Assembly (NCBI GenBank): GCA_024734495.1
Contig: JALMQS010000916.1
Coordinates: forward strand, 62,001-126,000
Reading direction: 5' to 3'
Length of the DNA: 64,000 bases
Source: Forficula auricularia
Lineage: Eukaryota > Arthropoda > Insecta > Dermaptera > Forficulidae
The notes beneath the pieces were generated by a model. The model was given only the letters and a program-made list of their open reading frames with translations, was not told the DNA's origin and ran no database searches. Below, piece after piece: positions 33,362 to 63,723 of this stretch (its first letter is position 1; the number at the start of each line of letters is the position of its first letter). The position numbers and the translations under genes were made by a program.

Positions 33362-36300
33362 GTAAGTATTTCTGTTATTTTAAAAAAGTCCTAGCTGAAA
33401 CTATTGATTTGTGTTAGATCATCAAAAAAGGCCAATACCTCTGCACCGCCCTCGATTGTGCCAACTGACGTAAGCTCCAAGTGGGATGCGGGAGAAGATG
33501 CAGGCGAACAGAGTATAATTACAACAGAGACACAAATTTCATTACCGCCCTACGCACCCGAAGATGAAGACTATGAAATGTTACCTTCGTTGGAACGCGA
33601 GGTGGAAACAGCCAAGGCATTCCTACAGAAGAGGAGTCCTCACTTGGGCATTAGCTTGTAAATAGAATCATGATAAAAAATCTGGCATACTTTAAATTTA
33701 CACTATATGACTTTACCATACATTAGAGGAATTCGTTAAAAATTCGATGACAATTTTTTCTACTGATTTTAACATGTATCCTGAGTGCAAAAAAGTGGTT
33801 TTTAATAAATCCCTCCATTAAAGGAGACAATAAAAGAGTGTGTCTTCTTCTGGAATTATAAATTTTATTTATAACGAGACTATAGTTTCGAGGGCTTTGC
33901 CCTCTTCATTAGTCTATATTGTAGGGGGGGGGTTCACTTTTAATTGGCTCGTAGGGGTCAAATAACATACGTATTTTATAGGTAAAAGTATTTATTTACA
34001 AAAAGGGGGTTTACATATTTTGTCTAGGGGTAAATCTTCTTAAAACATCGTTAATTAATACATCGTAATGGGTTACTCAAATCAACTCTCGTTTTCAACT
34101 GACTGAAGTTGCAACTGACATTCACACATGCATATCAGTGGTGGGAGAGATTGACCATATGCACTCTGTTTCGACAACCCGTCGAAACAAGTTGTCATAA
34201 TAATATTTGTGACATGCTTTTAGCCTAAAAGTGTTCGCTAAACAGGGCCTAGAACCCAGAAGATGGCCTTTCGAAAGAACAACGGGCCCTTGACTGGCAC
34301 GTGCTAACCATATGCTCTTAATAAAATAGAAATTATACAATTCATTAAAATAATTTCCCACATTATCTATATATCTGTGATAGACTGCGATGAAGAGGAG
34401 AAAGCCCTCGAAACTATAGTCTCCTTATAAATAAAATTTATAGTTCCAGCAGAGGACACACTCTTTTATTGTCTCCTTCAATACCATGGAGTATTTAAAA
34501 ATTCTGCTACCCTCGGCAAAAAACTTCCAATTTAAATTCCTCCATGTTAATAACTCCTATGAAAACGATTTTATTTATTTTTCATGGATGAAAAAGTGAA
34601 GTTTTCTACAAAACGCTCTCGTTTTTTTTCTGGGTGGATAGGGCTTTCATTTTAATCATTTGGGCACAACGGTCACATGCCTGATCCCCGGTTGAAATCC
34701 AAGAAGAAAAAAAAGTAAATTTTTAGGCAGCTAAATAGTGGGAAATAAACTTTGTTAATTTTCTACACCCTTATGTTTACGACTACAACTAAAATGAAAA
34801 CAATATCGTAATAGTTAGTTTTATTATAAAAAAATATTTTCTTATTGTTATAATTGCACCACACGAAGGAAATTCCCTTTTTACACCCTCGCCCCTTAGA
34901 GCTGGCGCTAATTTATTTTAATAAAGAAATATCAAATTTTATTTCTATTCGTCGATTATTTGTCAGCGAAGGGTTTTTCGATTCGATTTTTTCTATTTTC
35001 TGCAATTTCGAACCAAAATTTGCAAACCCCAAGAAGCCCAAATCTAATCTGTTATTCGTTTTGACAATACAAACATTTTAGCACCAGTTCTTGAGTTATT
35101 GTGGATATCTGAATCTATTCAGACAGAAAAAAATCATACTTAACAGTCTCAGGCTCCTTGCAAATTTTGGTTATTTGGCAATTTTCAAAAAGATTCAGTT
35201 AGATTTTGTTGCAAGGATTTTAAATGAAGAAGAGAAGATTTTATGGGCTGAGTTGGCTTGACGCGAAGGTTTCTGTGGATGCGGGTCTTAAACAGCTGAA
35301 AGTTATAGGTCGCGAGAACACGTTTACAGGAAGCGAGTTGGAATCTCTGGAAGTCATAGGAATAAAATAAATAGACTGCTTCAATACTTGCTACGAAAAA
35401 TACATTACATCGATTTTTGCTAGTGATCATCACTTCGCTGTACTCGCCGAGCTGGATTAATTTCTAGGAAAAAGCACTTTAATATAAGCCACTGCGATAA
35501 TATCTATAAAGCACAATTCATAAAAAATCTATTTAAATCCAAAACCTTATAATAAAACATATTCAGAATATTAGGACTCACTGAGGAAAACCGAAGCAAA
35601 GTGCGAAACCATTTGTACTAAAAAGAATATATTAAGGGTCTCTGGAGACAGTTGTAACGTCGTGTCTCCACTGGAGTGACCGCGCTGACGTCATCCGAAG
35701 CTGTCGCAAGTCGCGACGACGCGTCAGACTGTCGAAGACTTCATTTGACTTCATTTCATTTGAATTGATTTGATAAAATTTGGAAATTTTCAACAAGTGG
35801 ACTTTTTATCACATTGAGTTTTGAACGACTTATTTCACAATCTTCACGATTACTATACTTGAAAAGATTTTGTTTTGCCGACTGTAGCAGAGTTGTTAAT
35901 TCATAAAGAGAAATCAATGAGATTTTCCTATGCTTGATGAATAAACTCATATATATATTATTATAAAGCGGTGTTTTCCAGCCTGCGACGTTTTCCGCAT
36001 CCAATACTCCTTCTTCCAATATGACTTCTTTTTGTAGCTGCCTACTCGTCATTAGCCGGATAGTGACTGAGCGTTTTCTTCACGAGGCCAGCCCCTTGAG
36101 CCAAATGCCTGGTCGGTCAGTAAGGCAAAAGTGCCCGTTGCCTCGTCTGAGGCTGCCTCGGCCCGATCCATCGGTTGTTTTTGTGAATGCTCAAAGGCGC
36201 CTCGGGTCGTTTCCTGCGTTCACTCAGGATGGTTCTGCGGCAAACGCCCGAGGCAGCCTCGCGAGGCTGCTCGCTCAGTCAGTATCCGGCTATTGCCTCA

Positions 36301-39300
36301 TCCACACCCTGTTTCACGTTCGTCTCGGTCTTCCCCTTCTTCTCCGTCTTTCCGTGGGTATCCAGTTCCATATTTTACGAGGCCACCTATCTTCCGGGAT
36401 TCTTTTGAGGTGTCCGTACCATATTAATCTCTTCCTCTCTATTCTATCTATTATGTCATTTTCAATATTCATTTTGTCCCTTATAGTTGTATTTGGGATA
36501 TGCTCCAATCTTGACACTCTTCAACTCCTCATCGCATCCATTTCGAGCGGTTGTAATTTTTTTTTCGTTTTTCTTGTTCATGTCCCATGTTTCCGAATTG
36601 TATAGGGCTATGCCTTCCACTATGGACCGATATATATACTACCATGATCAAAAAGTTTCAGGAATTTATTAAGAAAATCAAAAATACAAATTTATTCATC
36701 AAACTCGATATTGTCCCATTCAAAGTACTCCCCTTCGACTGCAGCACACTTATGGTATGCCAGCGCTTGATCCAATCCTCGAAACATTTTTTATACTCGG
36801 TTTTCGGTATGGACTATCAGAGCCGTTTTCGATTTTTACGGTTTTCAAAATGAAATCGTCTTTGCATCAACGAGTTTGTATTAAATTGTGAGTTAAAAAC
36901 GGTGCGAAAATGTTGAAGAAGTGTTACTCTATCGAAAACAAACTTTCATCTCTGAAACAAGTTTTTGTGAGTCTCTCGAGAATGACGAAGTCAGTCGACA
37001 TCGAAACCGACGAAAACGTCAATAAAAAACTGTAAATTGACCATTGGAGAGATGGCAGTGAACTTAAACATCGCTTATGAATCCGTTCAAGACATTTCGT
37101 TTAATGATTTGGCTTTGAGACGACAAAAAAAGACCGGATTTGTGGGAATCACATAACGCCCGGTCGAACAATGGCATCGTTATCCGCAACTTTTTGACCA
37201 AGAACGGAACGAATACCATACAACAGCCACCGAATTCGACTGTTTTGGCTCCCTGCGACTTCTTCCTGTTCAATCGGCTCAAAAAATCGCTCCGAAGAAC
37301 GTTTTTTAGCAGTAAACAGGAGATAATGAAAAAATTGAAGACGGCTCTGATGGCCAAACCGAAAACCGAATATAAAAAATGTTTTGAGGATTGGATCAAG
37401 CGCTGGCATGAGTGCATAGCAGTCGATGAGGAGTACTTTGAAGGATACAATATCGATTTTGATTAATAAATTTGTATTTTTGATTTTCTGAATAAATTCC
37501 TGGAACTTTTTGTTCAAGGGGTATATATATACGTATAATTTATTTGTTAGAGACTATAGTTTCGAAGGTTTCAGAAATCTTTAATTAAATATTATATATA
37601 CCTATATGTATAATTGTATATTGTATATGTTTATTTGCATCAAACAGAAGACAACTTCATTGATTTCTCTTTATTTCTATATTTCTAATTTTAAGTAAGG
37701 TATGATAAAAATGGCTTGTGTAAAATTTAAAATAAAATTTACTTCATTTCTAGGTGGGATCATATGAGTGAAATATTAAATAAAGTTTTGTCAGAGAGGC
37801 CTAATAATGTTATAGAATGCTTTGAACAATATAGTCGTAGAATTATGTTGGATCGTCTACAAACAAAAACTCATCATTTAGTCAAAGTACGAGGACACAA
37901 GCCACAATATAGATTTTCGGCTAAAGCGATGGAATATATTAATGTAAGAAAACATTGCTGTATTCTTCATGTCATCACTTATCTTTCTTTTACTTTAATC
38001 GTATATTTGCCTACATTTGATTCAATGCCAGATCGAATGCGGTAGGTACAACATCAAATATTAAGTGAAAATAATATCTGAACTTATATTTCTGACTTAG
38101 AAATAATAAAGTTAAATAAAATTTATAATTTTCTCAATAATAATTAAAGAATAATTAACACATTAACGGAAATTGTTTTGATCGCGCTTTTTGGAACAAG
38201 TCTATATATCGCGCGAGACTACTGCTAGTTGAAGCTATTGGAGTCTGCTGAGTCTTAAGTCTGGACCAAAGAATGAAAAAGATATGATCCATTTAGCTAT
38301 AATCCAACGTCATTTTGCGTTTAGCCCTCATAATTTGGATGGATCACATCACATCCATCCAAGTGTCATGCGGGCTAAACGCAAAATGACGTTGGATTAC
38401 GCGCTAAATAGATCATATCTTTTCATTCTCTCTTTAGTCCAGACTTAAAACTCAACGAGATAATAACTCAACCAGCAATATCCTCACGATATCTTATTCA
38501 AAAAGCGCGATCAAAACAATCATTTTTCTTTTCATTGCTTCTAGTAAGTAAAAGCTTTGGGAATTTCAGCCAGAATATATACCTACTTACGAATTCCCAG
38601 GTTCCGGAGGCTTATTCTCAGAAATGATCACGGCTGTCTTGCGGCTAAGGGCTTGGTTAACCATATAAGTTGGTAAACTCTTTTTAAACATTGACAAAGG
38701 TAATCCTTGAAATTCACCTTTATTGCCCGGCGTGATGGCCAATCAGATGACAGGCACTTTCATCTGATTGGTCGTATCGAGCACAAGGTGAATAGGATTT
38801 ATATTTTGTCAACGTTAAAAGATTTCTTCGACATATATTCTTCTTTCGCTCTTTAAAATTATTACGGGTTCACAAACAAAATTGTTTAAGAGAGAAACTT
38901 GAGCTTGTGCTGCTAGGGGCGGTCTCTAAATTTATAGAAATTGGGAACTACTGCTTTAAATAAAATAATCTAGTGACTCTTAGAATAACAGTTAACGACA
39001 AAATAAAAATATGATCCCAATCACAAGGGATGAATTTCCTTACACAAGGAATTTTCTCAGAAAATCACAAGAGAGTGTCATCCATTAGAAGATTAGATAT
39101 CCGATGGAATGGATTATTTCTAATTATATGTCAGAATGATTGATTTTATCCCCTCGGGAATCGAACCCGAGTGCCAATAGTACAATGCGGACCATTTTGG
39201 CTACCTTGTGAGGTGCGAACCCTTCTGATATATCTAAACGTCCTGAATAGTTTACTCAAAAATGTAAATCTCCGTGTAAATGGCCCGGATTGCTTTTATT

Positions 39301-42300
39301 GGCCCTCAGGTTCGATTCAACGAGGGGTTAAAAAACAACCCTTCTGACATATGATTAAAAATACTCCATTCCATCGGATCTAATAGATGACACCCTCTTG
39401 TGATTTTCTTAGAAAATTTAAATCTATTTCTATCGGCAACTTGAACTCTCTCATATTCAGAAGGAATTTTGTTTGTAATTAAAATTCATCCCTTGTTAGG
39501 GACCACATATCTTCTTATCTAATAAATTAGAAGTATTTTTAATTGGAAAAGTTTTGTTTGTAAGAGTAGCAGAGTTGTTGATTAAAAGAGAAACAAAGAG
39601 GTTGTCCTCTGCTTGATGCAAATAAACATACACACATATATATATCGAGATCATATATCTGTATATATATTATTTATTTATTTATTTATTTGTTTGATAT
39701 AATATATATACAGATATATCATCTCGATATATATGTGTGTATGTTTATTTGCATCAAGCAGAGGACAACCTCTTTGTTTCTCTTTGTAGAAGTATTTTCT
39801 TTTGAAAACAGATTGGTAGAATTCAATGGAGAAATGATTGAAAAGATTTAGTTTGCCGAGAGAAGCAGAGTTGATGATTCATAAGGAAATATCAATGAGA
39901 TTGTCCCCTGCTGAATGCAAATAAACATACTAGTATACTTATATATATAATATTAATAGTTTATTTTTTAGAGATTATAGTTTCGAAGGTTTTGCCTTCT
40001 GCATCAAGCAGAGTTCAACCTTGTGATTTCTCCTTTTATATGGAGAATTGATGGAAAGACAGTGCATAGCTAACGAAAACTACAAATTCTGATTTTTTTT
40101 TTTTTATTGGAACATCATTTTCATTACCTTCAAAATCGACGTTTCGGAGGATCTTTCCTCCTTCTTCAGGGTTTGAAAGGGCTAAAGAAGGAAGCCTGTA
40201 ACCTTCCCCTTCTTATCTCTTTTAGTAGTGTCTTGGTTTAGAATTTGCTACTGACATTAACAGATTATTGCATTAAATTTTCTATTCTATTCTATCTTAA
40301 TTATATGGTACTCTAGATTTTCTAATAATTTTTTGGATTGAGGGGACCTTGAAAAGTAAAGATCTGTAAAAATCTCAATTTAGAATTTCTTCAAGAATAC
40401 AAGATTTCCATTACTACTTAGAGAATCAACGATTCTATTATTTGGATAATGAAAATAAAAATTTATCAATTGACTTCGTAATTTATCAGCTTTTCTCTTC
40501 TCCTTAACAAAAGTAATCACAAAAAAACGAGGTTGTTTTTTTGTTATTTCTTCCATCATTATTAGAACAAAAGAGGCTTTTTGTAATTGTCAATTTTCTG
40601 AATAGCTGATAGTTTTATACTTCTTATTAATAAAAGTGTTTAAAAAAATTTTAATCCCAAAATTGCAGCCCCCCTCTGCAGACTCCACCCCCCCCCCTCC
40701 TTCCCTAGCCACCCCACTAGTTTAAGCAACTGGTGTGGTTTGGCTAATGTATAATCTTATTTATTCCAGAGAGCCGCCTTGTAACTTGTTAGATATGCAT
40801 TTAAATAGAACCTTCTAAATTGTGGGTTGCATCGCAAATTCATACGTTTTTATTATGAATTTGTTAAAACTTGTTTGGTAGTTGATTTGTTTACTAAAAT
40901 TGTTTTACGAAAACTCCAATAAATACATCAGGCTTAGATCATAAACGTGAATAGTGATTAAAGTATTTTGGAATTAAAAATTTTTATAATTTAAAAAAAA
41001 AAAAAAAACTTATTTTCCTGTATTAATAAAATTTTAAAGATCTAAAACAATTTAATCTTGATGTGGTCTAATTAAATTAATGCAAATTTAGTCTGGGGAT
41101 TTACTTTCAGGCATCTTTGTAGGGCTATAGGCGTGGTTATATGGTTGCCACCTCTCCGGGTTTCAGTGAGTTATCTCCAGGCTCCGGATTTGAGGTAGTT
41201 GTTTCACCATATGGTTTTCTTAGGACTTTTTTGAAATTTAGAGAGATTATTTAAATATTTCTGCATCGATTGGTTCCAAAACGAAATTTATGAACAATAT
41301 AGTTCCGGAGATATTAAATTCCAAGGATAGAGTTTTTCAGACTCTTAAGAAAAAGATGGAAAAACGCTCTGGAGTAAACATGCTTTTAGCCTAACAATAA
41401 GAAGAAGAATGCAAGAATGGGATTCAATAATAAAATGCAGCTCCTATAGATCTTGAACGAACCTTGCCTTACTGAAGGGAAGAGGAGAAATCAATGAAGC
41501 GGGGAGTTGTCTGAACATCCGGGTCTTGAAGGATTGAAGATTCTAAGTGTCGGGAAAGAAAGAAGCAAGGTGAGAGTTCCAATCGTTTGAAGTCATGGGA
41601 ATCAACGTATTGCCGAATGAAACTTCTCCAAATTAATAGCGAAGTGGAAGTCAGCGAATTGTGAACAAAGCAGTCCTTAAGAGAAAATACTAATTTTAAT
41701 TTATCCGAGCACATGATGTGATAGTATATAATTATATAAATTAGAGAAAGCTTCTTCGACTAGCCAATGAGTCGAGAGATATGCTAAAATCCGAGTCTAG
41801 TAGTCTGATAGCTCGTTGCTTGAATGTATCCAGGAAGGCAAGAGAATGCTTTTTTAAATGACCATGCCACAATGAAAAAATTTCATCAGATTGCACAAAG
41901 TTTCGACACCTATTTCTGAATTCGTTGTCAGCTGCTCTCGGAAAGTCTTTTGTTATTTATTATTGATTAAAAAATATGCTCCCTAGGTGCTTCACCCGAA
42001 TCTTATCTTTCGATAGAGTTTGAGAAATCTATAAAAGAGAAAGTTTGATATTTTCTAAATTATATATTTTAAATCTATTTTAATATTTTGAAAAGAAATT
42101 ATCTGATTTAAATTGAGTGAATTTTAAATTTTTTAAAAATATGTTGTTTTCTTAAAGTCAATATCATAGTGGCTATATTTTTGGCAAATTGTTACAAAGA
42201 ATCAAAGATCTTATTAAATATGTTTTATTCATGTCAGAAGGGATCGTCTCCTTAGAAGTCGAACCCAATCTCCACGACTTTTAGGTTTTAAGGTAGTTCT

Positions 42301-45300
42301 TTCACAAATGCAAAAATTCAAGAAGTCTTTGAAACTTGGAGTATAAGTCATTAAAAGCATAATACACATACCTACTGTAAAATTTGAAGACGATTTACCA
42401 CACCAAACATGAAATAATTGCAATTGAAAATGATATTTTTTACATAGGGTAGATAGGGAAAGGGTAGGATATGATCATAATTTTATTTTTTTTCATTGAA
42501 GAACTTTCACCATCTTGATGAAAAACTAATATTTGTTAGAATAATATATTCAGAGTAACTTAAAAAATTGAAATTGAAATTATTTACCACGTAGTTTTGA
42601 TAAAAAAAAAAAAAAAAAAAAAAAAAACATATTTGGGCGAATATTTTTAGTGGAGGGGATAAAATATCAATGGCTTGCAAACGATCCGGCAAGTATGTGT
42701 GTATACATATAGAGATTTCGTAGTGTGAGTGGACAGTCACGTTAAAAAAAATACCTAACCTAAAATTTTAGTTCCATTCATATTTATAGAGTGGTTACGA
42801 GCCTAAAACTTTTTGTGTGGATTGTCGTGAAAGAACCTCCTTAACTATGTCAGAAGGATTTCGTCTCTAAGGCTAACCAAAATTTGCACTTAGGTTCGAC
42901 TTTTAACGGAACGATCACTCATGGCATAAATAAAACATATCTAATAGGATCTTTGATTCTTGGTTTTTAAATTCTTGAAATTATTAACATTGAAATAAAT
43001 AAAAATTTTCATTAAATTGAAGGGTTGGTTTTGTCACAAATATAATAAAACAATAATTTTAATAACTATTAGAATTATTTAATTGATAACTATACAGTTT
43101 CGGTCACCACTGGTCGACCATCCTCAGTAGTTCTAAAAATTGAAATGAAACATTTATTTACATTTTTTCTTTTTATAGAGAATTATATAATACAAATTTT
43201 TATTTTTTTTATTTTTACAATAATTTGAAATCATACATACATCTCGTTCAAGAACCGGAATTTGTCATTTCACATGAAACATTCATTCTTAAATCTTCAA
43301 TATAGATACATCACACAATTCATTACAATCACACACATACATATATATAGCAACAATTTATAAAAACGTTTATCACTGAACTAGAAACTATTTTGAATTA
43401 ATGATTATATTAAATATTATTTTCAATTTTATTTTTTTCTAATTATCTCATTGCATCGTCAATTATTATACAATTAAAAAACCCATTATAAATAATCCAT
43501 TCTAGAAACACATTATAAGTTAAATTCATTCTTTATTTTTAATTTTTTATTAATGAAATATCAAAATACACATCTCCCTATTACATTTTTCTTATAAAAT
43601 CAATACATGTTTAATCAACATACTAAATCAAATCAATATTCTCACAACAATGACACAATGAGACTATAAATAAATGTTTCATTTCAATTTTTAGAACTAC
43701 TGAGGATGGTCGACCAGTGGTGACCGAAACTGTATAGTTATCAATTAAATAATTCTAATAGTTATTAAAATTATTGTTTTATTATATTTGTGACAAAACC
43801 AACCCTTCAATTTAATGAAAAATTTAAATCAAGTCACTTAAGTTCTGGAAGAAATTTAATAAATAAATAAAATTGTATTATACTTAATGTTTTAGCGATA
43901 TTTTGAGAGAAAATCTAAATTCGAAGAAGGCGATGAAGAAGAGGAAGAAGAGGATTATGGAGAAGCACTTGAAGAAGAAGAGGAAAGGAGAGAAAAGTTA
44001 AAAACGAAATGGAATCTAATTGAAATGAATTATTATTTAGAATTGTCCGGGATTGGTTTCCCTAAAAAGGAACTCTTTCTTTTAAATCTAGCTATAAAAG
44101 AACTCGCAAAGACAAAGCCTGTTATTAATTGTAGGTAAGAGATAAAAGAATAATCAATTAAAAGTTTTAATATTTTTTTTATCCTAAAATAGTTTTTTTT
44201 TGTTGGCTTTTAAATTGAGAAAATATTCGAATTTTTAAATTTATTTCCGTTTTTTCAACTTAAGTAGCATCATACTTCTGACATTTTTTAATCTCATCAT
44301 CATCATTGAGTATACAGTCCTAAGACTGGTTTGATGCAACAATCCGTCTCCACTCGACTCTGTCCCCCGCCAGCTGTTTAACCTCTCTAAATGTCTGGCA
44401 TCCCATATCCCCAATTATTTGGTTGAAATATTCTAATCTGGGTCTTCCCCTTCCCCTTTTCTTTCCCACCTCCCCCTCCAAGATATCCCTAAGCAGTCCC
44501 CCATGTCTCAGTGTGTGCCCCATTTTTAATCTATCCCTTTCTAAAGTCGAGGCCCTAGTGGTGTTGAAGATTGTATTAAACCCTAATGGTTTCAATATAT
44601 GTTTTCAAATGTCCGAAAATTTAATAATTAACCATATATATTTTCATCAAAATTAAATCAAATTTATTAATTTATTTTATCGTTTTAAGCTAGATTTTGG
44701 GGGAAGATATTTGGCACCAAAAATGATTATTTTATAATTGAAGCTCAATTTAATGAAGATGAACTTGAAAAAAGAAATGAAGTAAGTAAAAAAATTTAAG
44801 TAATCTCTCTTCAGAGTCTAAGAAAAAATAGATTAACTAAGAATAAAAACTAGAAACGTTTTTGAATTATTAAAAAATATGGTTTTTGTTCAAAATTCTA
44901 AAGTCACTAGAGGCTCATTTTTAGCTACATAATGACTTACTTAAAGGCCTAATCAAAGATTTTATTACATATGTTATATATATATATTTCAAATCAGAAT
45001 CGATCCCCCCTCGGAAGTCGAATGCAATTCTTCATAATGTAAAGCTAATATTTTGACGAAAATAGCATAGCTTGTAATGGTGTTAGAATTTTGAAAAAAC
45101 ATAATCTTTTTTAAAAGTTCAAAAACTCATTTGCTTTCATAATACGACTACGTTCGATCGACTCTGTTCTGACTAACAGGTCGTAAAAGTCAATCTGGTC
45201 GTATGTTAGCCATATATTTATTAACATATTTATTAAATTAGAAAAGTGCCGGACCACTTCATTCGCCAATACGTATATCCCCATGACTTCAAGGAACTGG

Positions 45301-48300
45301 AACTCTTTCCCAGCACTTATAACCTTCAAACCTTCAAAACCCGAGTGCATAAACACCTACGTCTCCACCCTCTCAATTAATCAACTTTCCATTCTCTTCG
45401 GTAATGCAATGGTCTTTCGAGATACATAGGAGCTGCATCTTTACCGCCCCTTCTTGCATTCGATTGCATTAAAAAAACAAAACAAAAAAAAAAACCCACT
45501 ATTTTTTAATTAGAAAATCACAAGAGGGTGTCATCTATTAGATCTGAGATGGAATGGATTATTTTTAATTATGAGGATAAGTAAAAAATTACTTACACTT
45601 TTCATTCTACAACTTTATTAAACTAAGATAGGTGTACAACAGATACATTATTTTTCGATATAGTCTCCACCGAGGGGTGAACCCCGACCTAAAATGTGTA
45701 CTCCTACTTCCACTTCCACTTCCAAGTAGAAGACAATAGATGACAATAGATTATCTAATGAATTCCAAAGTAATTCAAAATAATTCCAAAGACGGTGTAC
45801 ACCTAATTCCAATCGCGGTTCACCCATCGGTCTCCACCTTTAGCAATGCACTTGGTCCAGCGAGCCACAAGCCTCCGGATGCCTTCCTGGTAGAAGGTTT
45901 TCGGTTGGTCATGAAGCCACTTTTGCACCGCATCTCGAACACCCATTTAGTTCGTCGTGGATAATGTGATAGGCAGAACCGTGACTAATGTTTAAAGAAG
46001 ATGCTACCTTATCTATGGTAACTCACCTATCTGCTGTAATCATCTCTTGAGCTTGCTGAATGTTGTCGTCAGTGGTCGAAGTTGACGGTCGCCCAGCTCC
46101 CTCTTTTTGTGTTATTCTCGTTCGGCCTCTTTTAAACATTTCGATCCATAAAAAAACGCTTTTACGAGATAAAGCACTTTCCCCGTATTGTGACAAAAGT
46201 CTCGGGTGAATTTCAGAATCTTTCACACCCTCTGACCACAAAAATCTGACCACTCCTCGCTGCTCCTCTTTGGTGCAATCTGATAGCGGAGCTGACATGC
46301 TTATGCTGTTGTAGCTAGACGACACCTGACGCGATCGTGATTGAATTCCGCACACGTCACCACAGACGCGCCAACTCAACGCATTCGCATGCGGCCGCCT
46401 CCTATCTTAGTTTAATAAAGTTGTAGAACGAAAAGTGTAGGTAATTTTTGACTTATCCTCGTATATTTCAGGAGGGTTGTTTTTTATTTTTTTTTTTTAC
46501 CAATTAAATTAGAGGAAAAAGTGAAAACTATTGGCATTTTGAACTTTTATATTCAGAATTCCTGATTGAAAAACAGAAAAAAGTATTTTTTTAAATTGGG
46601 GAGCCCTTGATCAGATGTAGCTAATGAGCTATAAAAATGCATATATTAACCCTTTGCACTCCGAACAATTTTTAATATGACCTATCTCAAATCTGACTCA
46701 AAATAATAATAATGACTCATCATATGAGTGAAAATATAATATATATTTTATAAAAATTAAGAGTATAGAACTTGATGAAGAACTAAAGAATATTTGAATT
46801 AAATATATATTTATATTTAAAATAAAAACATTATTTCTTTTATGTCGTCGCTGCGGCGACAACGGAGTAGAAGCTTATCATACAATGTCGCCTCAACGGC
46901 GACAACAACGGAGCTACTATATTTGATTAGCTTACATTGTCGCCGCAGCGGCTACAATGGAGTGCTGAGGGTTAATAAGTTACGCCTTTGTGCCAAGTTT
47001 CATCTTTTTAATTATAAGAGTTGGTTGACAAAAAATTGCCAAATCACCAATATTTACTGAGTGACAATTTTTCCTCCAATTAATTTCGCAGCCATTTGAT
47101 GCAGAAGAAGCAGAAGCAGAAGGAGGGTTAGAAGAAGAGGAGATAAGAGAAAAATCCGAAGAGATGGACGAAATGCTCGAAGGTGAAGATGAGAAATCAG
47201 AAATCAAACCACTTCGTCCAGTTTATCCGCCTATACCGAAGAATCCGTGGCGGCCCCCAAAGGAGACGCCTGTCGAGCGACCCGGCCAAGGGGCCAATAA
47301 ATATGTATTAGAATTTTAAGATATCTCTTAGAAAGTGATAATTCGAGAAATATTAATAATAATTTCATTTTTAGACATATTTTGTAGCAAATAGTCCTGT
47401 TGACAAATGGGAAAATCTCCCTGATGTTGCGCCCAATCAGATAGTAATAGCAAGACAAATTAAACGGGCCTTTACCGGAAATCTTAATGCAGAAGTAAAC
47501 ATTTTCATATTATTATTATAGATAAAGCTTTGATTAAATAAATAATGGGTGAAGTAAAAAGTTCTGAGCTTTTTTCGTTAGATGACTTTAATGAGCCATA
47601 TCTCACGTTGTATACGTCGATCATTCTTTTTTGCGATTTAAAGGTGACATAATGCTTTAAAAAAAGTGCTTTGACAGTTTTGTGTTTGGTGAAGCCAGTT
47701 GTGTGTTAGAGCGTTCCAAAATGGAGGTAAAAAAAAGAGAAAATTCGATACATTCTTCGGTGCCACTTTGACCAAGGGGAAAAAGTGGAGCATGCGACCA
47801 AAACAATTGTGCTGTTTATGGACCCAATACAGTATCGAATGCAACAGTGGTTCCAACGATTCCGTTCTCTTAATATGGACGTCGAAGATGGGACACGCTC
47901 TGGTAGGACAATCGTCGAAAATGTCGATAAAATCATGGAAATTGTCGAGTCAGACCAGCATGCGAGCACTTATTCCATTGCCCAGGAACTGAAGATTAAC
48001 CAGAAAACCTTTTGGAACCATTTGCATAAGGCTGGTCTCAAGAAGAAACTCGATGTATGGATGCCACACGAATTGACGTAAAATAAACTTTTGGACCGAA
48101 TTGAAGCCTGCGATTTTTTGCCTAAACGATGGCGATGGCGATGGGGATGGTGACTGGCGATGAAAAATGGGTCACATACGAGAACAACAGGCAAAAAAGA
48201 TCGCGATCCAAGCGCAGTGAGCCGGCCCAAACGATCGGCAAGATGTTTTTACTGTGTGTGTGGTGGGATTGGAAGGGAATCAACCACTATGAGCTTCTCC

Positions 48301-51300
48301 CATCTGGCCAATTACTCAATTCTGACCTATACTGCCAACAACTGACCAGATTGAAGCAGGCGATCGACGAGAAGCGGCCAGAATTGGCCAATAGGAAGGG
48401 TGTTGTGTTCCATCAAGTGGACGCCAGACGCTCACATCGTTAACAACGCGCCAGAAGCTCCGAGAGTGGGATGGGAGGTTATATCGCACCCACCGTATAG
48501 CCCATACCTGACACCAACCGATTATCACATTTTCAAGCATTTAAAAATTTCCTTGATGGTACAAAACTGGCCTCAAGAGAGGCTTGTGAAAATGAGCTGG
48601 TCAAGTTTTTCACCAATAGGACTTCTTCAATTGTGGAATTATAAGATTCCAAAATTTCTTTAATATAATACACTTTTCTAGGTAATTTAAAAAATAACAA
48701 ATCTATAGTTTATAGTAAGACCAAAGTTTCGTATCTCTATTAAGACACTTCATCAGATTTCCGAGAATCTGTAAAATTGTTTGTATATATATATATATAT
48801 TTTTTTTTTTTTATTTTTTTTTTATTTATTTATTGTCACCGGGAACAAGGCCCATTTAGACAGCACATCAGTAAAGTGTTAGTAGGATTAGTGAGGGAGC
48901 CGAGATTTAGCCGGTCGAAATTTTATATGCTAGCTAGGCTCGAACCCGGGCCTCCCGCTTGAACATCGTCATCAACGATGCTGAAGCGGGGCCAACGCCT
49001 TAGCCAGCTCGTACAACCCGATTCCCCAAAAATTTTGTAAATGAAAAAGAAAAACACAAAAACTGCAATACTTACATTAGTGAAAGTGAAAATACGAACA
49101 AGTGAGATTATTTTAGCTCTCCTTGAAGAGCCGGCCCTCAAAACACTTTTTTAAGATAACATGTTTAAACGTATTTTAAAGACCTATTTAAAGATTTCTT
49201 ATTTGAAGAGGTGAGCATTTTTTTTTTTATTAAGATTTTATGTTTCCGGTGTTGCTCAATTTTTTTTTCCACTTTGATGATTCTACTATCTGTGGATCAT
49301 CCAACTAAACTTACTTGTAATAAACTCATAAATTACAAGCCTAGAAAGAAGGAATAGTCAACAAAGTCTAATTATAATTGCTCGTTTTTTATCTACCAAT
49401 TTTGGGACGGAACCAGGACTGGAGGAGCTAAGGGGGCCACTCAAATGGGGCGCTTGTAACTTACAATGGAAATTAATTACAATGATGTGATTAGCGAATT
49501 TGCTATAAGAAAGGCGTGATTAAAACATGCATTCGAAGAGTACAAATATATAATATTATATATATTTATTTATATGGTTTTTTAAATAGTTTTATTTTAA
49601 ATTTACCTAGAAATTATTTTGACCCTGGCAATAAACGGACCCAAAAAATATTTTGCCTAGAAACGCAAATTAGCTTAACCCGTCCCTGTATGTAGCTCTA
49701 AAAATTATTATAATTTTTTTAAGAAATGTACCTATATATTTTTTTAATTTCATTCATAAAAACCTTCATTTAAATTTACATATAGCTCTATCTACTGATT
49801 CTAGAGGGCTTGATGAGTTTTAATAAAGAGATGAAACGATGTGTTATTAGAAATTACAGCATTAAATCTAAATAAGAATTTACTAAGGTTATCAAAGTTG
49901 TTATTAAATAAGTTAGATTGTATGATGGAAATATAAAAACTGTATGCTTTTGATAAATCAATACATTTTTAAATCATTTGTATATGCAGACTAGTCTGCA
50001 TATAATATAGTTGATTTATGTAATAATGAGATATAGAATCTATGAGCCATTGAACTTTTAATTTTAGGAAAGACATACGTCTAGTGTTTGGAGCTTAAAC
50101 CCAAGGCACTCCCTCTGCCACCCTAAACCAAAGATACCCATCTATCGAGTTGACACACAAACAACAGTGTTCTCCCGGTGGATAATTTTGGAATCACTCC
50201 AGATATCTTGACAAATTCTGAACAAACAACACTTCTCGCCGACTAACCATGCTCTCTCAAATTACTACAACCAATAAAAGAAATTCAACTAAAGAAATTG
50301 TTGGCCATAAAGAAGAAACCACATTTCAGCATACATAAGCATCCGGCTAATCAGAATATCGGCGAGGTATTCCTGCAAGCCCTAAAAAATACTGCGGAAA
50401 GAAAATCAAGGTTACTCCTAAAAACATACCCCAAATTGTACCTTTAATCAAAGTTAGTTGGTTTAACCCCAATCCAGTAAAAAGTGGGTATCATTGGATA
50501 AATCCGGCCATAATAGCAAACACAGCCCCCAGCTGGCTGCCCCTCTCTCGGGTCTAAAAACGCCATTCGGATTTGAGACGAAGCTCCTGTTTTTAAATTG
50601 TCATTTTGGATTGAATTTAATTACCACCGAAATGGAACTTTTTCAAATGCTAAAACATCACCGTTAACTCGTAGTGTTATCTCCCAAATCACCGTTAACC
50701 AGTAGTGTTATGTCCCAAATTCGAAAGAACAGTATAATATTAGTATAAACGAGAATGAAATAAATTCTTGAAAATATTTTTTTTAATAGTAAAAATCTTC
50801 GTGTTTAAAAATGGAACAAAATGTTTCTGAATCGTTTGAAGTTATATTTAACTTTGGTGTATATATATAATAATTGTATTTATTAAATAATACAATCAAA
50901 AGCATTATACTAATAATATATATTCTGTTAGTTATTTACTTACCCGCCATTTCCTGGCAAAGAATGTAATTATCTTCGCGCTCAAATTGCACGGATTTCA
51001 GCTGCAACCATTATCTCCCCAAAAGGATTTTTTACTACGTCACAGGATGAGGAAGAGATAGAAGAACAAGAAAATGAAGGTTTCTTTTTTTTATTTTTAA
51101 CTAATTTTTAATTTCCATATGTCTTATTTAAAACACTAATGATTTTTTTATTAATTTATTCAAGCTGAGGACATTCTCGTTAACGCTTATTATGATAGGA
51201 TACCTTTAATTAATCTAGCGGATCCGAATATGTCTTCCTGGTGTCATCATAGGCAACATATTTTAAAACAGGGCCGAGTCGTATGGTGGAATCCCATAAA

Positions 51301-54300
51301 GGTAACTTTTCTAACGAAGTTCAAAATAAATACAACCTTGACTTGACTTATTTCCCGTATAATTAAAGTTCGTTACATTTTAAAATTAAGGATTTTTTTC
51401 TTTCCGATTCCATAAATAGTATGGTGAAGAATCATGTTGGAAAAAATGTTTTTGCTTCCTTTTTTCAAAGTATCTCATAAACGGCTAAAACTATTTTAAT
51501 AGTGGAGGAAAAAAATTAAAGGCAGCCCAAAGATAAAGAAAAGTAAAAATTCCGAAAAAAATAATTTATTGGAACGTGATTTTCATTATCTTAAAATTAA
51601 ATGTTTCCTTCTTCAGGATATAAAAGGGGGGACAAATTTTTGTTAATATTAATAGGAACTATAAAGAAGGATAATTAATATAAGAGAGTTGTTTTTAAAC
51701 AAGATATATATATCGCTAGACTACTGCTGGTTGAGGCTATTGGAGTCAGCTGAATCTTAAGTCTGTACCAAGAGAGAATGAAAAAGATGTGATCTAGCAT
51801 CATTTCGCTATTAGCCCAAATGACGATTTTTACCAAACACTGAAATGGATCACCTAGTGGATTTGTAATCTGAGATGTTATATATTCAATCCCCCAGTCC
51901 AGCGTATATAGGAAACTCATGATTAATTGATAGCAACACCTTGCACACGTGTTAACTGAGCGCTTGACTGGGGGATTAAATATATAACATCTCAGATTAC
52001 AAATCCTCTAGGTCAGGGTTCCGCAAAGTGTGTGCCGCGGCACACTGGTGTATCGTGGTCATTAGTTGGTGGGCCACGGAAAAATGTAAAGTTTTATGAA
52101 CCACCCACACATAGCTGATAGTTATGCGAGCAGCCTTATCAACGATTGCTCCAAATTTTGATCTGCTGTGCTCAATTAAGCATGCTCACATTTCTCATTA
52201 AACATATTTTCATATTATATTGATTTTAATAATAAATAAATATTAAATAAACATTGGTTTTTACTTTGGTGTACCTTTAAAATTTCTTGATTTTGTAGGT
52301 ATACCTTGAACACAAAAAGTTTGCGGAACACTGCTCTAGGTGATCCATATCAGTGTTTGGTAAAAAGCGTCAGGCGGGCTAATCGCGAAATGATGCTGGA
52401 TCATACCTAGATGGATCACATCTTTTTCATTCTCTCTTGTTCCAGACTTAAGATTCAGCTTACTCCAATAGCCTCAACCAGCAGTAGTCTAGCGATATAG
52501 GTATACTTTGTTTAAAAACGCGGTCAATAACAACTCTCTTTGATATATTAATTATTCTTTAATATATTAATTAGAAAACTATTTAAATTCATTATTTCTT
52601 ACACAGAAATATATAAATTCAGATATTATTATTACTTAATATCTGACAAAAATCACCTGCATTCGATTCGCGATTGAATCAAATATAGGAAATTCATGAT
52701 TTTTAAAGAAGGATTTAAAAAAAGAGGGAAAGACCCCCCCCCCCCCCCCCGAAACGTCGATTTTGAAAAGAATGAAAATGACGTTCCAAAATATTATTTG
52801 TACTTTTCAATATCCTTATTGAGCTGTCTTCTGTCTTTTCTTCATTTTTCCCTAAGTACCTAATACACCAGTCCGTCTCCAAAGAATAAAATATTTATAT
52901 TTTAATCAAATACCTAAGTGAGATCACGGCGTTAAGACTAACAAACAAGGTATATTTTGTAAAAATTAAAAATATTATTTTAAGAGAAATTAATTATTTT
53001 GTCAAAAAATGATTGTATTCTGTCTGGTCAAATTTTTGCGAAAGTCTTATAAAAATTTCCCAAAAAGAGTGACTATCTGCTAAAGAAGCCTAGGAGAATA
53101 TATGGGTTTTCTTAGGATTTTTTCGAAATTTAGCCAGATTATTATTTAAATACTGCATCGATTGGTGGCAAAACGAAATTTATGAACAATATAGTTCCGG
53201 AGATACTAAATTCCAAAGATAGAATTTTTCAGACTCTCCTATGGTACATTACACTATACGGGATATCGGAAAGTTTACAGACATATTTAATTATAATTAA
53301 GAAACTCTTCTTAACATTGTTACAAAAAACTAAACCAACATTAAACAATAAATAATACATTTCTTAAGAAAATTTTAATTCATAGTTACAACACAGTTTC
53401 TGAGATAATAATAAATAATGAAAAATGTATAATGAAAAATTTGCACTAAAAACAAGTTGGCAACAGCGCATTTATTTAACCTAAAAAGTGGGTTAACTTT
53501 AGTAATTTTTTGACGTTTTTTCGCTGCAGCCATTGTCGCAACAGCTTTCAATCGCTTATTAAGAACTTTTTGTTTTATAAATCTCCCTTTATAATGTACT
53601 TTATCTGAAATTTCTATGATAAATATATATAAGCTCGGACAGTGTTGCCAGATTTGTCAAACGAGCACGGTATTGGCTAGTAGTGGTACATAAACAGCAA
53701 AAAGTTTTGCCTTTATGAATTATGAATCCTTATTGTCTGTTCTATATACTCTAGTATTAACTTTTTTCTAGTATTGTCGCGAAACAACTATCTTAAAATA
53801 AAAGAAACTGCTAGTTTTTGTAAAAATTACGATCAAAACAAACTACAAAGTTCCAAATGGGATATCCTTTATCCTTATCTTATTACATGACATACAGGTT
53901 GAAGATGAATTGGCTGAAAACGAAACCGAAGAGGAAGAGGAGGAGGAGGATGGGAAATTAGAGGCCGAAGTGGTTCGTGAGGTGGGTCCGCCACTGCTCT
54001 CTTCTCTCCACGATGATGCAACCCTGGAGGCTATCGTTCCATGGACAACGCGCTTACCCAATGATATACTCACTGATATTGGTGTGGTTTTAGTACGTTC
54101 GAATCTTTGGCCCGGTGCATTTACATTCGCAAATAAAGGAGGAAGGTAACTTAATATAATAATCAAAATTGCAACCGATTTTAGTTACCATATTTGCTGG
54201 AAAATTGTATCAGCTCCAGAACATATCCCAAATATTTCGAATCGAGTTTATGGAAGACTCTAATACCTCTCTCTCTTTCTCCCTACGACCCTCAAATTTT

Positions 54301-58060: not shown

Positions 58061-58061
58061 A

Positions 58062-58675: not shown

Positions 58676-58870
58676 ACTATAAGAAATGAAAAAAACTCTT
58701 TCGTCATTGGTTGACAATGGATTGAGACCAGGTCGAATACGAAACCAGTATACAAAATTTTAGGCCTAATTCTCGTCAAATCGTCGGCATCGCAGAGGTA
58801 AGATGCGTTCATTATTTTAACATTTACTAACTTAATTTAGACTAAGTGTAAAAATGACGAGATATAACTA

Positions 58871-60172: not shown

Positions 60173-60185
60173 TAGATAGATAGAT

Positions 60186-60345
60186 TCCTTTTTAGCAAGC
60201 ATATCAGGACAGTCATCAAATAGATTGAAAATATTTTCTTTTTTAAATCATAAAAGAATATAAGTTTGAAAAAGAAAATATTTTCAATATGTTTGATGAC
60301 TGGCCTGATATGCTTGCTAAGAAGAGAATATTTGATAAATTGACA
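60186..60345. repeat. Inverted repeat beside hammerhead-like motif H8
   Basis: TTTTTAGCAAGCATATCAGG pairs with CCTGATATGCTTGCTAAGAA, centre near 60262. Confidence 0.7.
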
Positions 60346-60374
60346 AATATCAAGGAAGTTAATTTATTTGAGCC

Positions 60375-60405
60375 CTGAGGAAGTCAACAAAGTTGACGAA
60401 ACGTT
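60375..60405 (+). ncRNA. Hammerhead-like motif H8
   Basis: CTGAGGA, extra A, perfect stem II GTCAAC AAA GTTGAC, GAAAC, triplet GTT. Flanking TTATTTGAGCC and TGCAAAAATAA can pair as stem I with an internal loop, as natural hammerheads do. Confidence 0.7.
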
Positions 60406-60409
60406 TGCA

Positions 60410-61810
60410 AAAATAAAAATTATTTGCATAAGATATTGTCCTTATTTCCCTAGAACAACTTTATTAATTTAATCGATGGACATAAATAATCAAAATAATA
60501 ATAAATAAATTAACATAATGCGTACACTTCTCAAGGGTTAATTAGTCCTCCCCACATTCCTCACAAACGATTGATAGCTACCACCAAAAAGGTTTGTATT
60601 TGAACAATTAATTGGAAAAAATTATCAATTGATGCCTCGGCAAAGTTAATTGTGAACTAAATTTTAGTGGATTTCTCGACGCGATTAAAAATACAAAGAA
60701 ATAGAAGAAAAAGTAAAAACTTTTTCAAGACTAGGTTCGCTTGCTAGTTAGAGCCGCAACAAGTAATTTCTTTTGTGTTTTGTACATTTTTGTCTGAATT
60801 TTAATGACGTCTAATTGAATATTCTCTCTCATATATATAAGGTATCGTTTTGGTCCGAGTGCAAAAGGCCATTCCTAGAATAATAGAAATTAAGAAATTC
60901 ATCTCTAATAGTCTGAAACAGGTCTGTTCTTGTAAGTGGATGCCACTTACAAGTCCAGACCTGTTTCAGGCATCCTTGCAATACCCCTTAGCTCTAAAGA
61001 AAGAGAGATAATTCTATCCGCGCCCTTTGTAGTTATTTTCATTCTAATGAAAGAATCGCTCACCCGCACATTAAATAATAAAAAAGTGAAAACTTTTTCA
61101 AGACTCGGTACACTAGAGCTGCCCTAGTAATTATTAATAAATTTAAATATAAATTGTTCATTTATGGCTATACTATAACATCCTCTTAAAATCTCAATAG
61201 AATAATTCAAAAAATAATATTTTCTGCCTTTTGAACGAGATATTCCAAAATCTAATCAGTACTATGTATTTTGATACAAACCAACTTTTTAACTTTTCGT
61301 TCTTGGGCTATCTTGTGTATCGGAATTCAGATACACAAAGAGAAAAAATCATAGTCGAAAAATATTTTTCTCCGCGTTTCAGACATTTTAAAGCACAATG
61401 AGCAAATATTTATTTTTATGCGTGATTTAATACTATAATAGGGCCGCCTGGGAGGAGAGTAATTTTTAACCTGAGTTCATTCTAGTGGTATATATTAATA
61501 GTTTAGCTCAGTTATAAGAGTAATTAAAAATCATTACTACTTAATTGTTTTATCTTCGTTAACCACTTCACAAAAAAAGACTTACTTTTTTGAATCATAA
61601 ATATGTACTTTGCTGAATATAATTCTCTCTTTGTAAAATCATATGGAAGTTCCTCATTTTTTTATTTCGAGATAAACTCTCTAAAATTATCCCAATCCAG
61701 ATCAAAAAATGATTTTGAAAAATATTAAATTAATAATTAGTTCTGAAAAGGACAGGTTGGTTATATAATTTTTAAAATAAGAAGTTATAGCTCTTAAAAT
61801 AACTACATAA
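60410..61810. other. DNA without recognised gene
   Basis: Holds two AAAACTTTTTCAAGACT repeats (60712, 61080) and a short palindrome (about 60912-60968, GGTCTG..CAGACC type). Nothing coding. Confidence 0.4.
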
Positions 61811-62144
61811 CAGCTCATTCAATAAGTCCGTAAGGATGAAGTAAGAAGAAAAACAAAATTTTGACAACAAACTCGATTTTATTATTCAACATAGTTGCCT
61901 TCGAGGGCTGATACAACGAGTATAGCGATTTTCCAACTTTTTCGAACATACCACTTTTATAGTAGGATTTCTCTTTCTCGTCAAAATAGGCCTCAGTTTC
62001 AGCGATTACTTCATCATTGGACTTAGAAATTTTCTTTCCAGCAAGCATTCTGCCTTGAGATCTTGAAAAACAGGATAAAGTCGCTGGGTGCTAAATCTGG
62101 AGAATATGGTGGGTGGGTAAGCAATTTGAAGGCCAATTCATTCA
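61811..62144 (-). pseudogene. mariner element, missing 3' third, inverted
   Basis: Minus strand from KLNELAFKLLTHPPYSPDLA (third catalytic Asp in APSD) through a frame break to NDEVIAETEAYFDEKEKSYY, ending in the terminal repeat TCATTCAATAAGTCCGTA at 61814. It is the same family as 58871-59825 and begins where that copy stops. Confidence 0.85.
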
Positions 62145-62396
62145 ATTTTTATTTAATTAAAAAAAAAATTATATGGAATTTATTTATATACCTATATACC
62201 TACACATAATCTGTGGACCACTAGAAATCTAGAAGTGCAAAACTGGGTGCGGGGGTGGGGATGGATGTGGGGGAGTCCGGGGGTGGAGTGGGGGGGGGGC
62301 GTGGTTTCAGGGGGGGGTCGGGGGGCGTTTACTATGTATTTGTATTTTTTTTAATTTGGTTACCGTGCATCGCTCGGTGGCTCCAGGTACTATTGA
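62145..62396 (+). mobile_element. Helitron-like element, 3' half
   Basis: Contains ATTTATTTATATACCTA, a G-rich block (62248-62330) and the end hairpin TACCGTGCATCGCTCGGTGG before CCAGGTACTATT. Confidence 0.6.
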
Positions 62397-62399
62397 TTA

Positions 62400-63360
62400 A
62401 AGTATAGTGACAAAAATGCAAGGAAGTTAATTTATACAGTATTTGACTGAACTACACTCGCCTTCATCTAAATCGACCCAACTCCTAAGCGCGCATACAA
62501 AATCGTTTTTTTAAAAACGGCTAAGCTGATATATTTTTTTAAGCTCATTTATTTAGCTTTACATTAAATTTGTGATCTGAATGGCTCGAACTGGAAAAAT
62601 AATATCTCATTAGATAAAAGTACTTACATACAAAATAATTATTTTTATTGTTTACATTTCTAAAATTTGTCTGCATGCTTCAAGAATTTCGCGGTACACA
62701 AAAGTGCCGCGGCACAGTGGTTGAGAATCGCTGATCTAGAGCGTACCTACTCTTGAAATGGTTTAATTTTCATCCAATTTTTCTATGTAAAATTTCACTC
62801 GCAAATTTTGAATTTTGTAGACTTTATGATGTCCCGATATATCCCTGCTCGGCAATGAAGAGTGGAACTTTCAGTGTAGCTATCTTCATGTCATAACATG
62901 CTGAATATAAACGTCATTTTTGATTTCGTCGTAGAAATATTATAATTTTATTACAAGATATTCTTGATTCAAGTTTTTTATATATATTTTAATTATACGT
63001 CATATAAGTAATTTAACCAATTTGAATTTGGCTTTTCTTTCAATTTCTCTGGTATAGATTTTACATCTATTTAACAAAACTTATAAAAATGAGGTTATTT
63101 AATATATAAAAAGAAAAACAAACGAAATATATTCTATTTGAATTTTTTATTTAAATATATAAAATTATATCTACTTATCAAAGGTAAATAAAATTCTTGA
63201 CTATGTATATTATATAATAATATAAATTTGTTTTTTTATTATTTAAGCAATATTGTTTGTGATTAATCATTAACTTTTCTAATAAATGTAATTTTTATAT
63301 AAATATAAAATAAAACCTTATTTTTAAAATATGAGAACATCTGATTAAATGACAAAAAAT
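62400..63360. other. DNA with one hAT-like end, otherwise unrecognised
   Basis: At about 62718-62742 CACAGTGGTTGAGAATCGCTG resembles a hAT end, without a partner. The rest is AT-rich. Confidence 0.4.
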
Positions 63361-63436
63361 ATAAACTTAAGTGGATATTGATGAGGCAGTCAAAAAAGAA
63401 GAAGATAATTTACACTATCTTTTTATTCATAAAACC

Positions 63437-63468
63437 GACGTTTCGGAGGCTATTCCCTCCTTCTTCAG
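63437..63468 (-). ncRNA. Hammerhead-like motif H9
   Basis: Minus-strand copy of H10 in the left arm. The stem I strands GGTTTT and AAAACC are both present. Confidence 0.7.
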
Positions 63469-63692
63469 GGTTTTGAAAAGTCAGTGAAGGAAATCCAATG
63501 CGGCATTCCCTCTGTCTCCTCTTTCAGTGGCAGTAACAATAATATCTTGTATTTCATTCTCAGCAGAATTATAATGTAATAATATTGAAAATGAATATTG
63601 AGAATGAAATACAAGATATTATTGTTACTGCCACTGAAAGAGGAGACAGAGGAAAATGCCGCATTGATTTCCTTCACTGACTTTTCAAAACC

Positions 63693-63723
63693 CTGAAGAA
63701 GGAGGAATAGCCTCCGAAACGTC
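63693..63723 (+). ncRNA. Hammerhead-like motif H10, best example
   Basis: AAAACC (stem I), CTGAAGA, extra A, GGAGG AATAG CCTCC (stem II), GAAA, a two-pair stem III AC/GT, GTC, GGTTTT (stem I partner). All parts fit the minimal hammerhead of Penelope-like elements. Confidence 0.75.

What the first reader, a model, noticed from the sequence alone, without database searches (positions are those of the whole stretch)
33878..63723. A dispersed set of hammerhead-ribozyme-like motifs
At ten places listed as H1-H10 the pattern is CTGANGA, one extra base, a stem-loop, GAAAC, a very short stem III, and GTC or GTT. The stems are conserved by pairing while their sequences differ (GGAGG/CCTCC, GTCAAC/GTTGAC, GAGGGC/GCCCTC, GTGTCT/AGATAC). 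Compensating change of this kind suggests selection on RNA shape, or at least descent from working ribozymes. Minimal hammerheads with tiny stem III are known from the flanking repeats of Penelope-like retroelements. The extra base between core and stem II is seen in nearly every copy and may be a lineage variant.
Basis: partly seen in the sequence, partly recalled or inferred. Interest (0 to 1): 0.8.

Follow-up and report, generated by a model that had tools for sequence, protein, structure and literature searches.

The report
Hammerhead ribozyme relics in retroelement remnants
This stretch of animal DNA holds about a dozen scattered, partly decayed copies of a known kind of tiny self-cutting RNA, most likely left behind by Penelope-like jumping elements and often arranged as mirror-image pairs; the copies are real, but the kind is already known.

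Summary
CTGANGA + one base + stem-loop (at least 4 bp) + GAAAC occurs 7 times without mismatch, and 0 times in 40 resampled sequences, in the reversed window, or with 0, 2 or 3 bases in place of the one. With three decayed copies and two fragments there are 12 remnants in six families (E and F are kin), all within 33.9-63.7 kb. In each family the next bases offer a GTC/GTT/GTA triplet and a 2-bp stem III. Stem I can pair in four families, not in two. The extra base lies between A9 and an invariant G10.1-C11.1 pair. Rfam finds no hammerhead here.

New here: four of eight elements are head-to-head inverted pairs with the motif facing outward, the layout published for Penelope-like pLTR pairs; a contig from another source shows it too (L003). 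In three pairs, folding the whole element buries the motif.

Best explanation: relics of the minimal type I hammerheads of Penelope-like pLTRs. This rests on anatomy: no Penelope reverse transcriptase or GIY-YIG was found in what I scanned of the window, and the genome search did not complete. New member of a known kind. Activity untested.

The parts
33878..33912 (-). copy A1: CTAATGA (G5 changed) + A + 6-bp stem II + GAAAC + TATA + GTC
34385..34421 (+). copy A2: core interrupted (CTGcgATGA), 4-bp stem II, GAAACTATAGTC
33817..34482 (.). element A: head-to-head inverted pair, arms about 100 nt at 90%, A1 and A2 facing outward
39973..40007 (-). copy A3 (decayed core TTGATGC, GAAACTATAATC); the tail resembles family A
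   Evidence: the weakest of the ten
40138..40169 (-). copy E1: intact core, 6-bp stem II, GAAACGTC; stem I of about 10 bp with mismatches
43093..43127 (-). copy C1: intact core, extra base T, GAAACTGTA, possible 5-bp stem I
43700..43734 (+). copy C2: identical to C1; sense strand of the radial-spokehead gene
43002..43825 (.). element C: head-to-head inverted pair, arms 159 nt at 99% identity, C1 and C2 outward
48719..48756 (-). copy D: intact core, 7-bp stem II, GAAACTTTGGTC; no convincing stem I
51578..51632 (-). fragment E2a: core CTGAAGAAG joined to GAAAC, stem-loop II missing
   Evidence: E 0.034
52687..52780 (+). fragment E2b: only GAAACGTC and the tail preserved, after a C run
   Evidence: E 0.12
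51570..52790 (.). element E2: inverted pair with both motif fragments outward; approximate ends at the shared tail GTTCCAA
60375..60405 (+). copy B: intact core, 6-bp stem II, GAAACGTT; follows a palindrome at 60184-60329
63437..63468 (-). copy F1: intact core, 5-bp stem II, GAAACGTC, stem I of 5-6 + 3-4 bp
63693..63723 (+). copy F2: as F1, one base shorter in loop II
63367..63794 (.). element F: near-perfect 428-bp palindrome (93% over 434 columns), F1 and F2 outward

Best explanation
The motifs are relics of minimal type I hammerhead ribozymes from the pseudo-LTRs of several Penelope-like retroelement families, most now short non-autonomous or decayed insertions. Shown here: core, stem II, 2-bp stem III, cleavable triplet, constant one-base insertion after A9, and outward head-to-head pairing in four elements. 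Inferred from published work on such elements: in a working element the ribozyme sits at the pLTR/ORF junction of a tandem transcript, cuts 3' of the GUH triplet (as a dimer through a joint stem III, or helped by the element's protein), and reverse transcription starts at internal sites further downstream. That would explain why insertions here end about 31-87 nt past the triplet. Self-primed or turned-around copying gives head-to-head pairs. In such a pair each transcript carries the ribozyme together with its own complement, so these copies are probably silent.
For: Motif excess and the exact one-base offset. GT[ACT] within 0-4 nt of GAAAC in 9 of 10 copies and 6 of 6 families, against 40 of 164 GAAAC words in the window (the 40 include the copies). 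Stem I, not used to pick the copies, is stronger within copies than between them: rank 24 of 720 pairings of six representatives. Head-to-head pairs A, C, E2, F. A contig of another source has the same core with one extra T in an inverted, outward pair (L003). Literature: minimal hammerheads lacking helix III in PLE pLTRs and thousands dispersed in metazoan genomes (PMC7761336, PMC6155905, passages); head-to-head inverted pLTRs with palindromes, captured unrelated DNA and solo pLTRs (PMC3846280, passages); reverse transcription starting 111-118 nt into the ORF with the ribozyme cut at +26, i.e. 85-92 nt past the cut, and two start sites separated by the 30-40 nt tail (PMC11167929, main text).
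Against: No RT or GIY-YIG in the ORFs scanned (31 of the 83 ORFs of 65 aa or more in 33-64 kb, plus 4 elsewhere) and no match to five short motif patterns in six frames of the window. Target-site duplications are not convincing: AAAATTT at C and TTAA at F can come from palindromic AT sequence. Stem I is poor in A1 and D. Isolated folds favour the hammerhead skeleton only in B, F1 and F2 of eight copies folded, and with slightly longer flanks F also prefers a competing fold. E2b's tail ends at 31 nt, shorter than the published sites. Rfam's hammerhead models do not score them. In PAc no RNA reads end at the cut site and cleavage is not needed for insertion in vitro, so even the relatives' ribozymes have no proven role. 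The nearest outside copy (L003) has GCC in place of GTC.
Confidence: 0.74

Rival explanations
1. Foldback or TIR DNA transposons (MITEs) whose inverted termini happen to contain a hammerhead-like sequence, moved by a DDE transposase.
For: The window has many foldback palindromes unrelated to the motif and several mariner-type remnants. F ends at TTAA and C between AAAATTT repeats.
Against: Arms of five unrelated families share only the ribozyme core and its geometry. E1 and E2 share little more than the motif and its tail (44 nt). Copies B and D have no inverted partner carrying the motif.
Confidence: 0.13
2. Animal retrozymes: small non-autonomous retroelements that spread as circular RNA and carry type I hammerheads.
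For: Type I hammerheads in short non-coding repeats are described in animals (PMC7229834, passages).
Against: Those are tandem repeats giving RNAs of about 170-400 nt with canonical hammerheads. None of the 7 tandem rows found in 33-64 kb covers a copy, and the stem III here is 2 bp.
Confidence: 0.05
3. Ribozymes kept by the host, acting in introns of the radial-spokehead gene.
For: Copies A3, E1, C1, C2, D and both E2 fragments lie between exon-like ORFs of a PF04712 gene at about 37.7-55.8 kb; C2 is intact on its sense strand.
Against: 6 of these 7 are antisense or decayed. C2 is predicted to pair wholly with its inverted partner in the full-element transcript. B and F lie beyond, and A before, the exons detected.
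Confidence: 0.03
4. Chance in AT-rich DNA.
For: Two of the nine first-pass matches and ten of the twelve two-mismatch additions look like chance.
Against: 0 exact hits in resampled, reversed or other-offset controls.
Confidence: 0.01

Closest known systems
Minimal type I hammerhead ribozymes of Penelope-like elements and Terminons (Cervera and de la Pena 2014; Lunse et al. 2017; Arkhipova et al. 2017; known to me only through citing papers)
   Same: Core CUGANGA/GAAA, one hairpin stem II, almost no stem III, type I layout, dispersed in non-coding DNA
   Different: A constant one-base insertion after A9 in all six families here (whether the published PLE motifs share it I could not read); no PLE gene seen beside them
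Penelope pLTR pairs of Adineta vaga (PMC3846280, passages)
   Same: Head-to-head inverted repeats, palindromes at the junction, unrelated DNA between the arms, solo copies
   Different: No ORF found here; target duplications of 8-10 bp seen in some copies there are not convincingly seen here; the passages I saw do not mention hammerheads
Poseidon PAc of Anolis (PMC11167929, main text)
   Same: Hammerhead with stems I and II at the pLTR/ORF junction. Cut 26 nt after the start codon, which fits A9-U9a-G10.1 being the ATG, as in copies C1/C2 (inference; the figure was not seen)
   Different: PAc has an active protein; the fragments here have none
Animal retrozymes (PMC7229834, passages)
   Same: Type I hammerhead in non-coding retroelements
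   Different: Tandem repeats there, none here; a stable helix III in most invertebrate ones, 2 bp here

Membership tests
Hammerhead ribozyme, minimal type I | Core CUGANGA and GAAA around stem II | tested here: met
   7 of 10 copies exact, one base inserted after A9 in all 10
Hammerhead ribozyme, minimal type I | A15.1-U16.1 pair and H17 cleavage site | tested here: met
   GT[ACT] 0-4 nt after GAAAC in 9 of 10 copies; A3 has ATC
Hammerhead ribozyme, minimal type I | Stem I closing the core | tested here: inconclusive
   Possible in families B, C, E, F; poor in A and D; rank 24 of 720. The skeleton is the minimum-energy fold in 3 of 8 copies
Hammerhead ribozyme, minimal type I | Recognition by Rfam hammerhead models (a yardstick, not a defining feature) | tested here: not met
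   No Rfam hammerhead hit at gathering, at E up to 5, or at E up to 10 on three short stretches, copies F2, C2 and B; sensitivity of those models to this variant unknown
Hammerhead ribozyme, minimal type I | Self-cleavage | not testable with these tools
   No biochemistry or RNA reads
Penelope-like element | Telomerase-like RT with GIY-YIG endonuclease in the element | tested here: not met
   None in 35 ORFs scanned with Pfam (31 of the 83 ORFs of 65 aa or more in 33-64 kb) or by five motif patterns in six frames. I therefore do not file these as Penelope-like elements, only as probable non-coding descendants; the genome search did not complete
Penelope-like element | Direct or head-to-head inverted pLTRs, often with palindromes | tested here: met
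   4 elements; layout from PMC3846280
Penelope-like element | Short tail after the ribozyme, ended by internal RT start | tested here: inconclusive
   Arms end 57 (A), 87 (C), 31 (E2b), 70-71 (F) nt past the triplet (counted by eye)
Penelope-like element | Target-site duplication of variable length | tested here: inconclusive
   AAAATTT at C, TTAA at F, none clear at A and E2
Animal retrozyme | Tandem monomers of a few hundred bp | tested here: not met
   No tandem array at any copy

The most novel reading that the evidence does not exclude
A lineage of Penelope-like elements is fixed for a hammerhead with one inserted base at position 9a. This would make the ribozyme dependent on the element's protein or on dimers, and the A9-U9a-G10.1 version doubles as the start codon. 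Head-to-head insertion then switches the ribozyme off by burying it in its own inverted copy, a built-in silencing of dead insertions.
Probability: 0.1. Interest if true: 0.55.

Novelty: new member of a known kind. Interest (0 to 1): 0.33.

Why it matters
It adds six sequence families of a known ribozyme kind that the Rfam models did not report here, and shows that the constant one-base insertion can serve as a search key. The head-to-head layout gives a testable reason why many genomic copies may be inactive.

Tried and rejected
Rfam hammerhead families: no hit at any threshold tried; the microRNA and sRNA names in those lists are all below their gathering scores and were ignored. Matches at 8390+ and 35581+: no stem II, dropped. 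6015(-) and ten two-mismatch hits: chance level, dropped. The pair count on alignment A1 (27 of 27 cells paired, 9 cells changed on both sides, 0 of 500 shuffles) is not used as independent proof, because the copies were chosen for having stem II. Model R1 matches its ten training copies by construction; of the other 35 rows up to E 10 only the two fragments at 51.6 and 52.7 kb stand out, at weak E-values. Isolated folds are mixed: the two-stem skeleton in B, F1 and F2; E1 adds three pairs that use core bases; A1 and A2 draw core bases into another stem; C1 and D lack stem I; with 66 nt F also takes a competing fold. Target-site duplications: looked for, not convincing. Penelope RT and GIY-YIG: not found in what was scanned. 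Whether the published Penelope hammerheads carry the same extra base: the two key papers are not held (one search used a wrong id). No paper in the library held 'hammerhead ribozyme', 'penelope' and 'head-to-head' together, so I found no printed description of such hammerhead pairs there; that is no proof that none exists.
Full report
WHAT IS THERE. The window is AT-rich (25-40% GC in 2-kb steps) animal DNA, probably of an arthropod (inference), with mariner- and Tc5-type transposase remnants and a radial-spokehead gene (PF04712) whose exon-like ORFs lie on the + strand at about 37.7, 43.9, 47.1, 53.8 and 55.5 kb, the last below the curated cut-off. The pattern CTGANGA-N5..30-GAAAC occurs 9 times against 0.47 expected, with 0 of 100 shuffles reaching 9. 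Two of the nine lack a stem II next to the core. I then required at least four contiguous stem II pairs and varied the number of bases between CTGANGA and the stem. With one base there are 7 exact hits; with none, two or three there are 0. Forty first-order resampled sequences give 0 for the one-base form, the reversed window gives 0, and 200 anagrams of the two core words give a mean of 0.02 and a maximum of 2. All seven lie beyond 33 kb. One decayed copy was added at one mismatch (A1). Two more (A2, A3) were added at two mismatches for their likeness to A1; ten other two-mismatch hits and one one-mismatch hit were dropped. A stricter descriptor that also demanded three contiguous stem I pairs at the core passed only C1, C2, F1 and F2 (4 hits, resampled mean 0.03 over 30). 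Two fragments (51.6 and 52.7 kb) share the tail of E1 and are the best non-training matches of a covariance model of the ten (E 0.034 and 0.12).

ANATOMY. By flanks and stem II the copies fall into six families: A (A1, A2, A3), B, C (C1, C2), D, E (E1 and the two fragments), F (F1, F2). E1 and F are kin (84% over 63 nt), so there are five different stem II sequences: GAGGGC/GCCCTC, GTCAAC/GTTGAC, GGTC/GACC, GTGTCT/AGATAC, GGAGG/CCTCC. The first pair is G-C in every distinct row (9 of 9), as expected for G10.1-C11.1 (numbering recalled), so the extra base sits between A9 and G10.1. It is A in eight copies and T in two. After GAAAC comes a 2-bp stem III (AC with GT) with a loop of 0 (B, E, F), 1 (C) or 4 bases (A, D), then H: GTC in A1, A2, D, E1, F1, F2; GTT in B; GTA in C1, C2; A3 has ATC. 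In the window 40 of 164 GAAAC words are followed by such a triplet within 0-4 bases, the copies included. Stem I was not used for selection. By duplex energy it is clear in E1, F and B, modest in C (-2.5 kcal/mol), and weak or absent in A1 and D. Over six representatives the true pairing of flanks ranks 24 of 720 permutations. Isolated folds of eight copies are mixed: the two-stem hammerhead skeleton is the minimum in B, F1 and F2; E1 has both stems plus three pairs that use core bases; A1 and A2 pull core bases into another stem; C1 and D show stem II but no stem I. With 66-nt flanks F too takes a competing fold. Stem II is stable in all of them.

ELEMENTS. Four elements are inverted pairs with the motif facing outward near both outer ends: A (33817-34482), C (43002-43825, arms 99% alike), E2 (about 51570-52790) and F (63367-63794, a near-perfect palindrome). 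E1 and E2b share 44 nt, the end of the motif and the tail. Past the triplet the arms end after 57 (A), 87 (C), 31 (E2b) and 70-71 nt (F), counted by eye. Short direct repeats at the ends (AAAATTT at C, TTAA at F) are too AT-rich and palindromic to count. Folding whole elements A (- strand), C and F (both strands) buries the motif in the opposite arm: stem II probability 0.0, and 42-50 of 50 positions pair with distant sequence. The single copies E1, B and D keep stem II (probability about 0.74-0.94) (eight folds in all, E2 was not folded).

OUTSIDE EVIDENCE. A scan of bacterial and archaeal genomes for the GGAGG version found one contig (L003, a MAG titled Syntrophomonadaceae). The part of L003 around the motif looks like arthropod DNA: stretches of its first 157 nt match, at 71-78%, the region of this window at 45.57-45.89 kb beside a weak Mos1-type ORF, while bacterial-looking ORFs (by eye) begin further in. 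I take it for contamination from the gut host (inference). It holds the same core with one extra T, and an inverted second copy facing away from it (743-790 against 850-898, 80%). Both are imperfect: the first has GCC where GTC is expected, the second has an altered stem II. Model R1 scores the first at E 0.19 and does not list the second up to E 5. Two virus contigs (L001, L002) also carry hammerhead-like motifs with one extra T, but the pattern demanded one base there, so they show only that such a variant exists. A GGAGG-type pattern found nothing in the virus collection.

WHAT IT IS. Reviews state that Penelope-like elements carry minimal type I hammerheads lacking helix III in their pseudo-LTRs, and that many metazoan genomes hold thousands of such motifs, mostly dispersed (PMC7761336 and PMC6155905, passages). 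Adineta Penelope elements have head-to-head inverted pLTRs with palindromes, captured unrelated DNA and solo pLTRs, which their authors read as a sign of self-priming, on an antisense template (PMC3846280, passages). In the Anolis element PAc the ribozyme lies at the pLTR/ORF junction, cuts 26 nt after the start codon, cleaves in vitro only with the element's protein, and is not needed for insertion in vitro; no RNA reads were found ending at the cut; reverse transcription starts internally, 111-118 nt into the ORF, and the 30-40 nt tail corresponds to the stretch between two start sites (PMC11167929, main text). The layout here fits this, and the tails of A, C and F are of that scale; E2b's is shorter. 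[quoted passage not shown] With an invariant G10.1 this suggests A9-U9a-G10.1 as ATG, i.e. the same inserted base; copies C1 and C2 read exactly so (inference, figure not seen).

LIMITS. No Penelope RT or GIY-YIG was found: none in 35 ORFs scanned against Pfam (7, 10, 10 and 8; these include 31 of the 83 ORFs of 65 aa or more listed for 33-64 kb) and no match to five short motif patterns in six frames. The genome search was busy at all 19 tries. Activity is untested. The published alignments that would tell whether the inserted base is usual in Penelope hammerheads could not be read, though PMC10085705 implies that insertions of one or two bases there are known (passage).

VERDICT. Descent from Penelope pLTR hammerheads is likely but circumstantial. 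New members of a known kind, with an under-described layout.

Noticed in passing
window 37731-55817 (+): A radial-spokehead-like gene (PF04712) split over at least five exon-like ORFs (the last hit is below cut-off); seven of the twelve remnants lie between them.
   Followed up: partly
window 35903-35965 / 37609-37674 and 39585-39785: Family A-like tails in inverted pairs without a recognisable ribozyme core, perhaps older members.
   Followed up: partly
window 2424-3301, 9936-10169, 10689-10885, 32841-33077, 55298-55482: Foldback palindromes without the motif; two of them (9.9 and 32.8 kb) draw Rfam microRNA matches below gathering score.
   Followed up: no
L003 1-2700: A bacterial MAG contig carries arthropod-like DNA joined to bacterial-looking genes: chimera or contamination.
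   Followed up: partly
L001 220-247 (-), L002 2602-2635 (-): Virus contigs with hammerhead-like motifs that have one base between CUGANGA and stem II; in L002 stems I and III also seem to pair (by eye).
   Followed up: partly
window 1-33000: None of the twelve remnants lies in the first half of the window.
   Followed up: no
window 24202-24597 (+): A CoA-binding domain exon (PF02629), looking like a succinyl-CoA ligase gene (the latter by recall).
   Followed up: no
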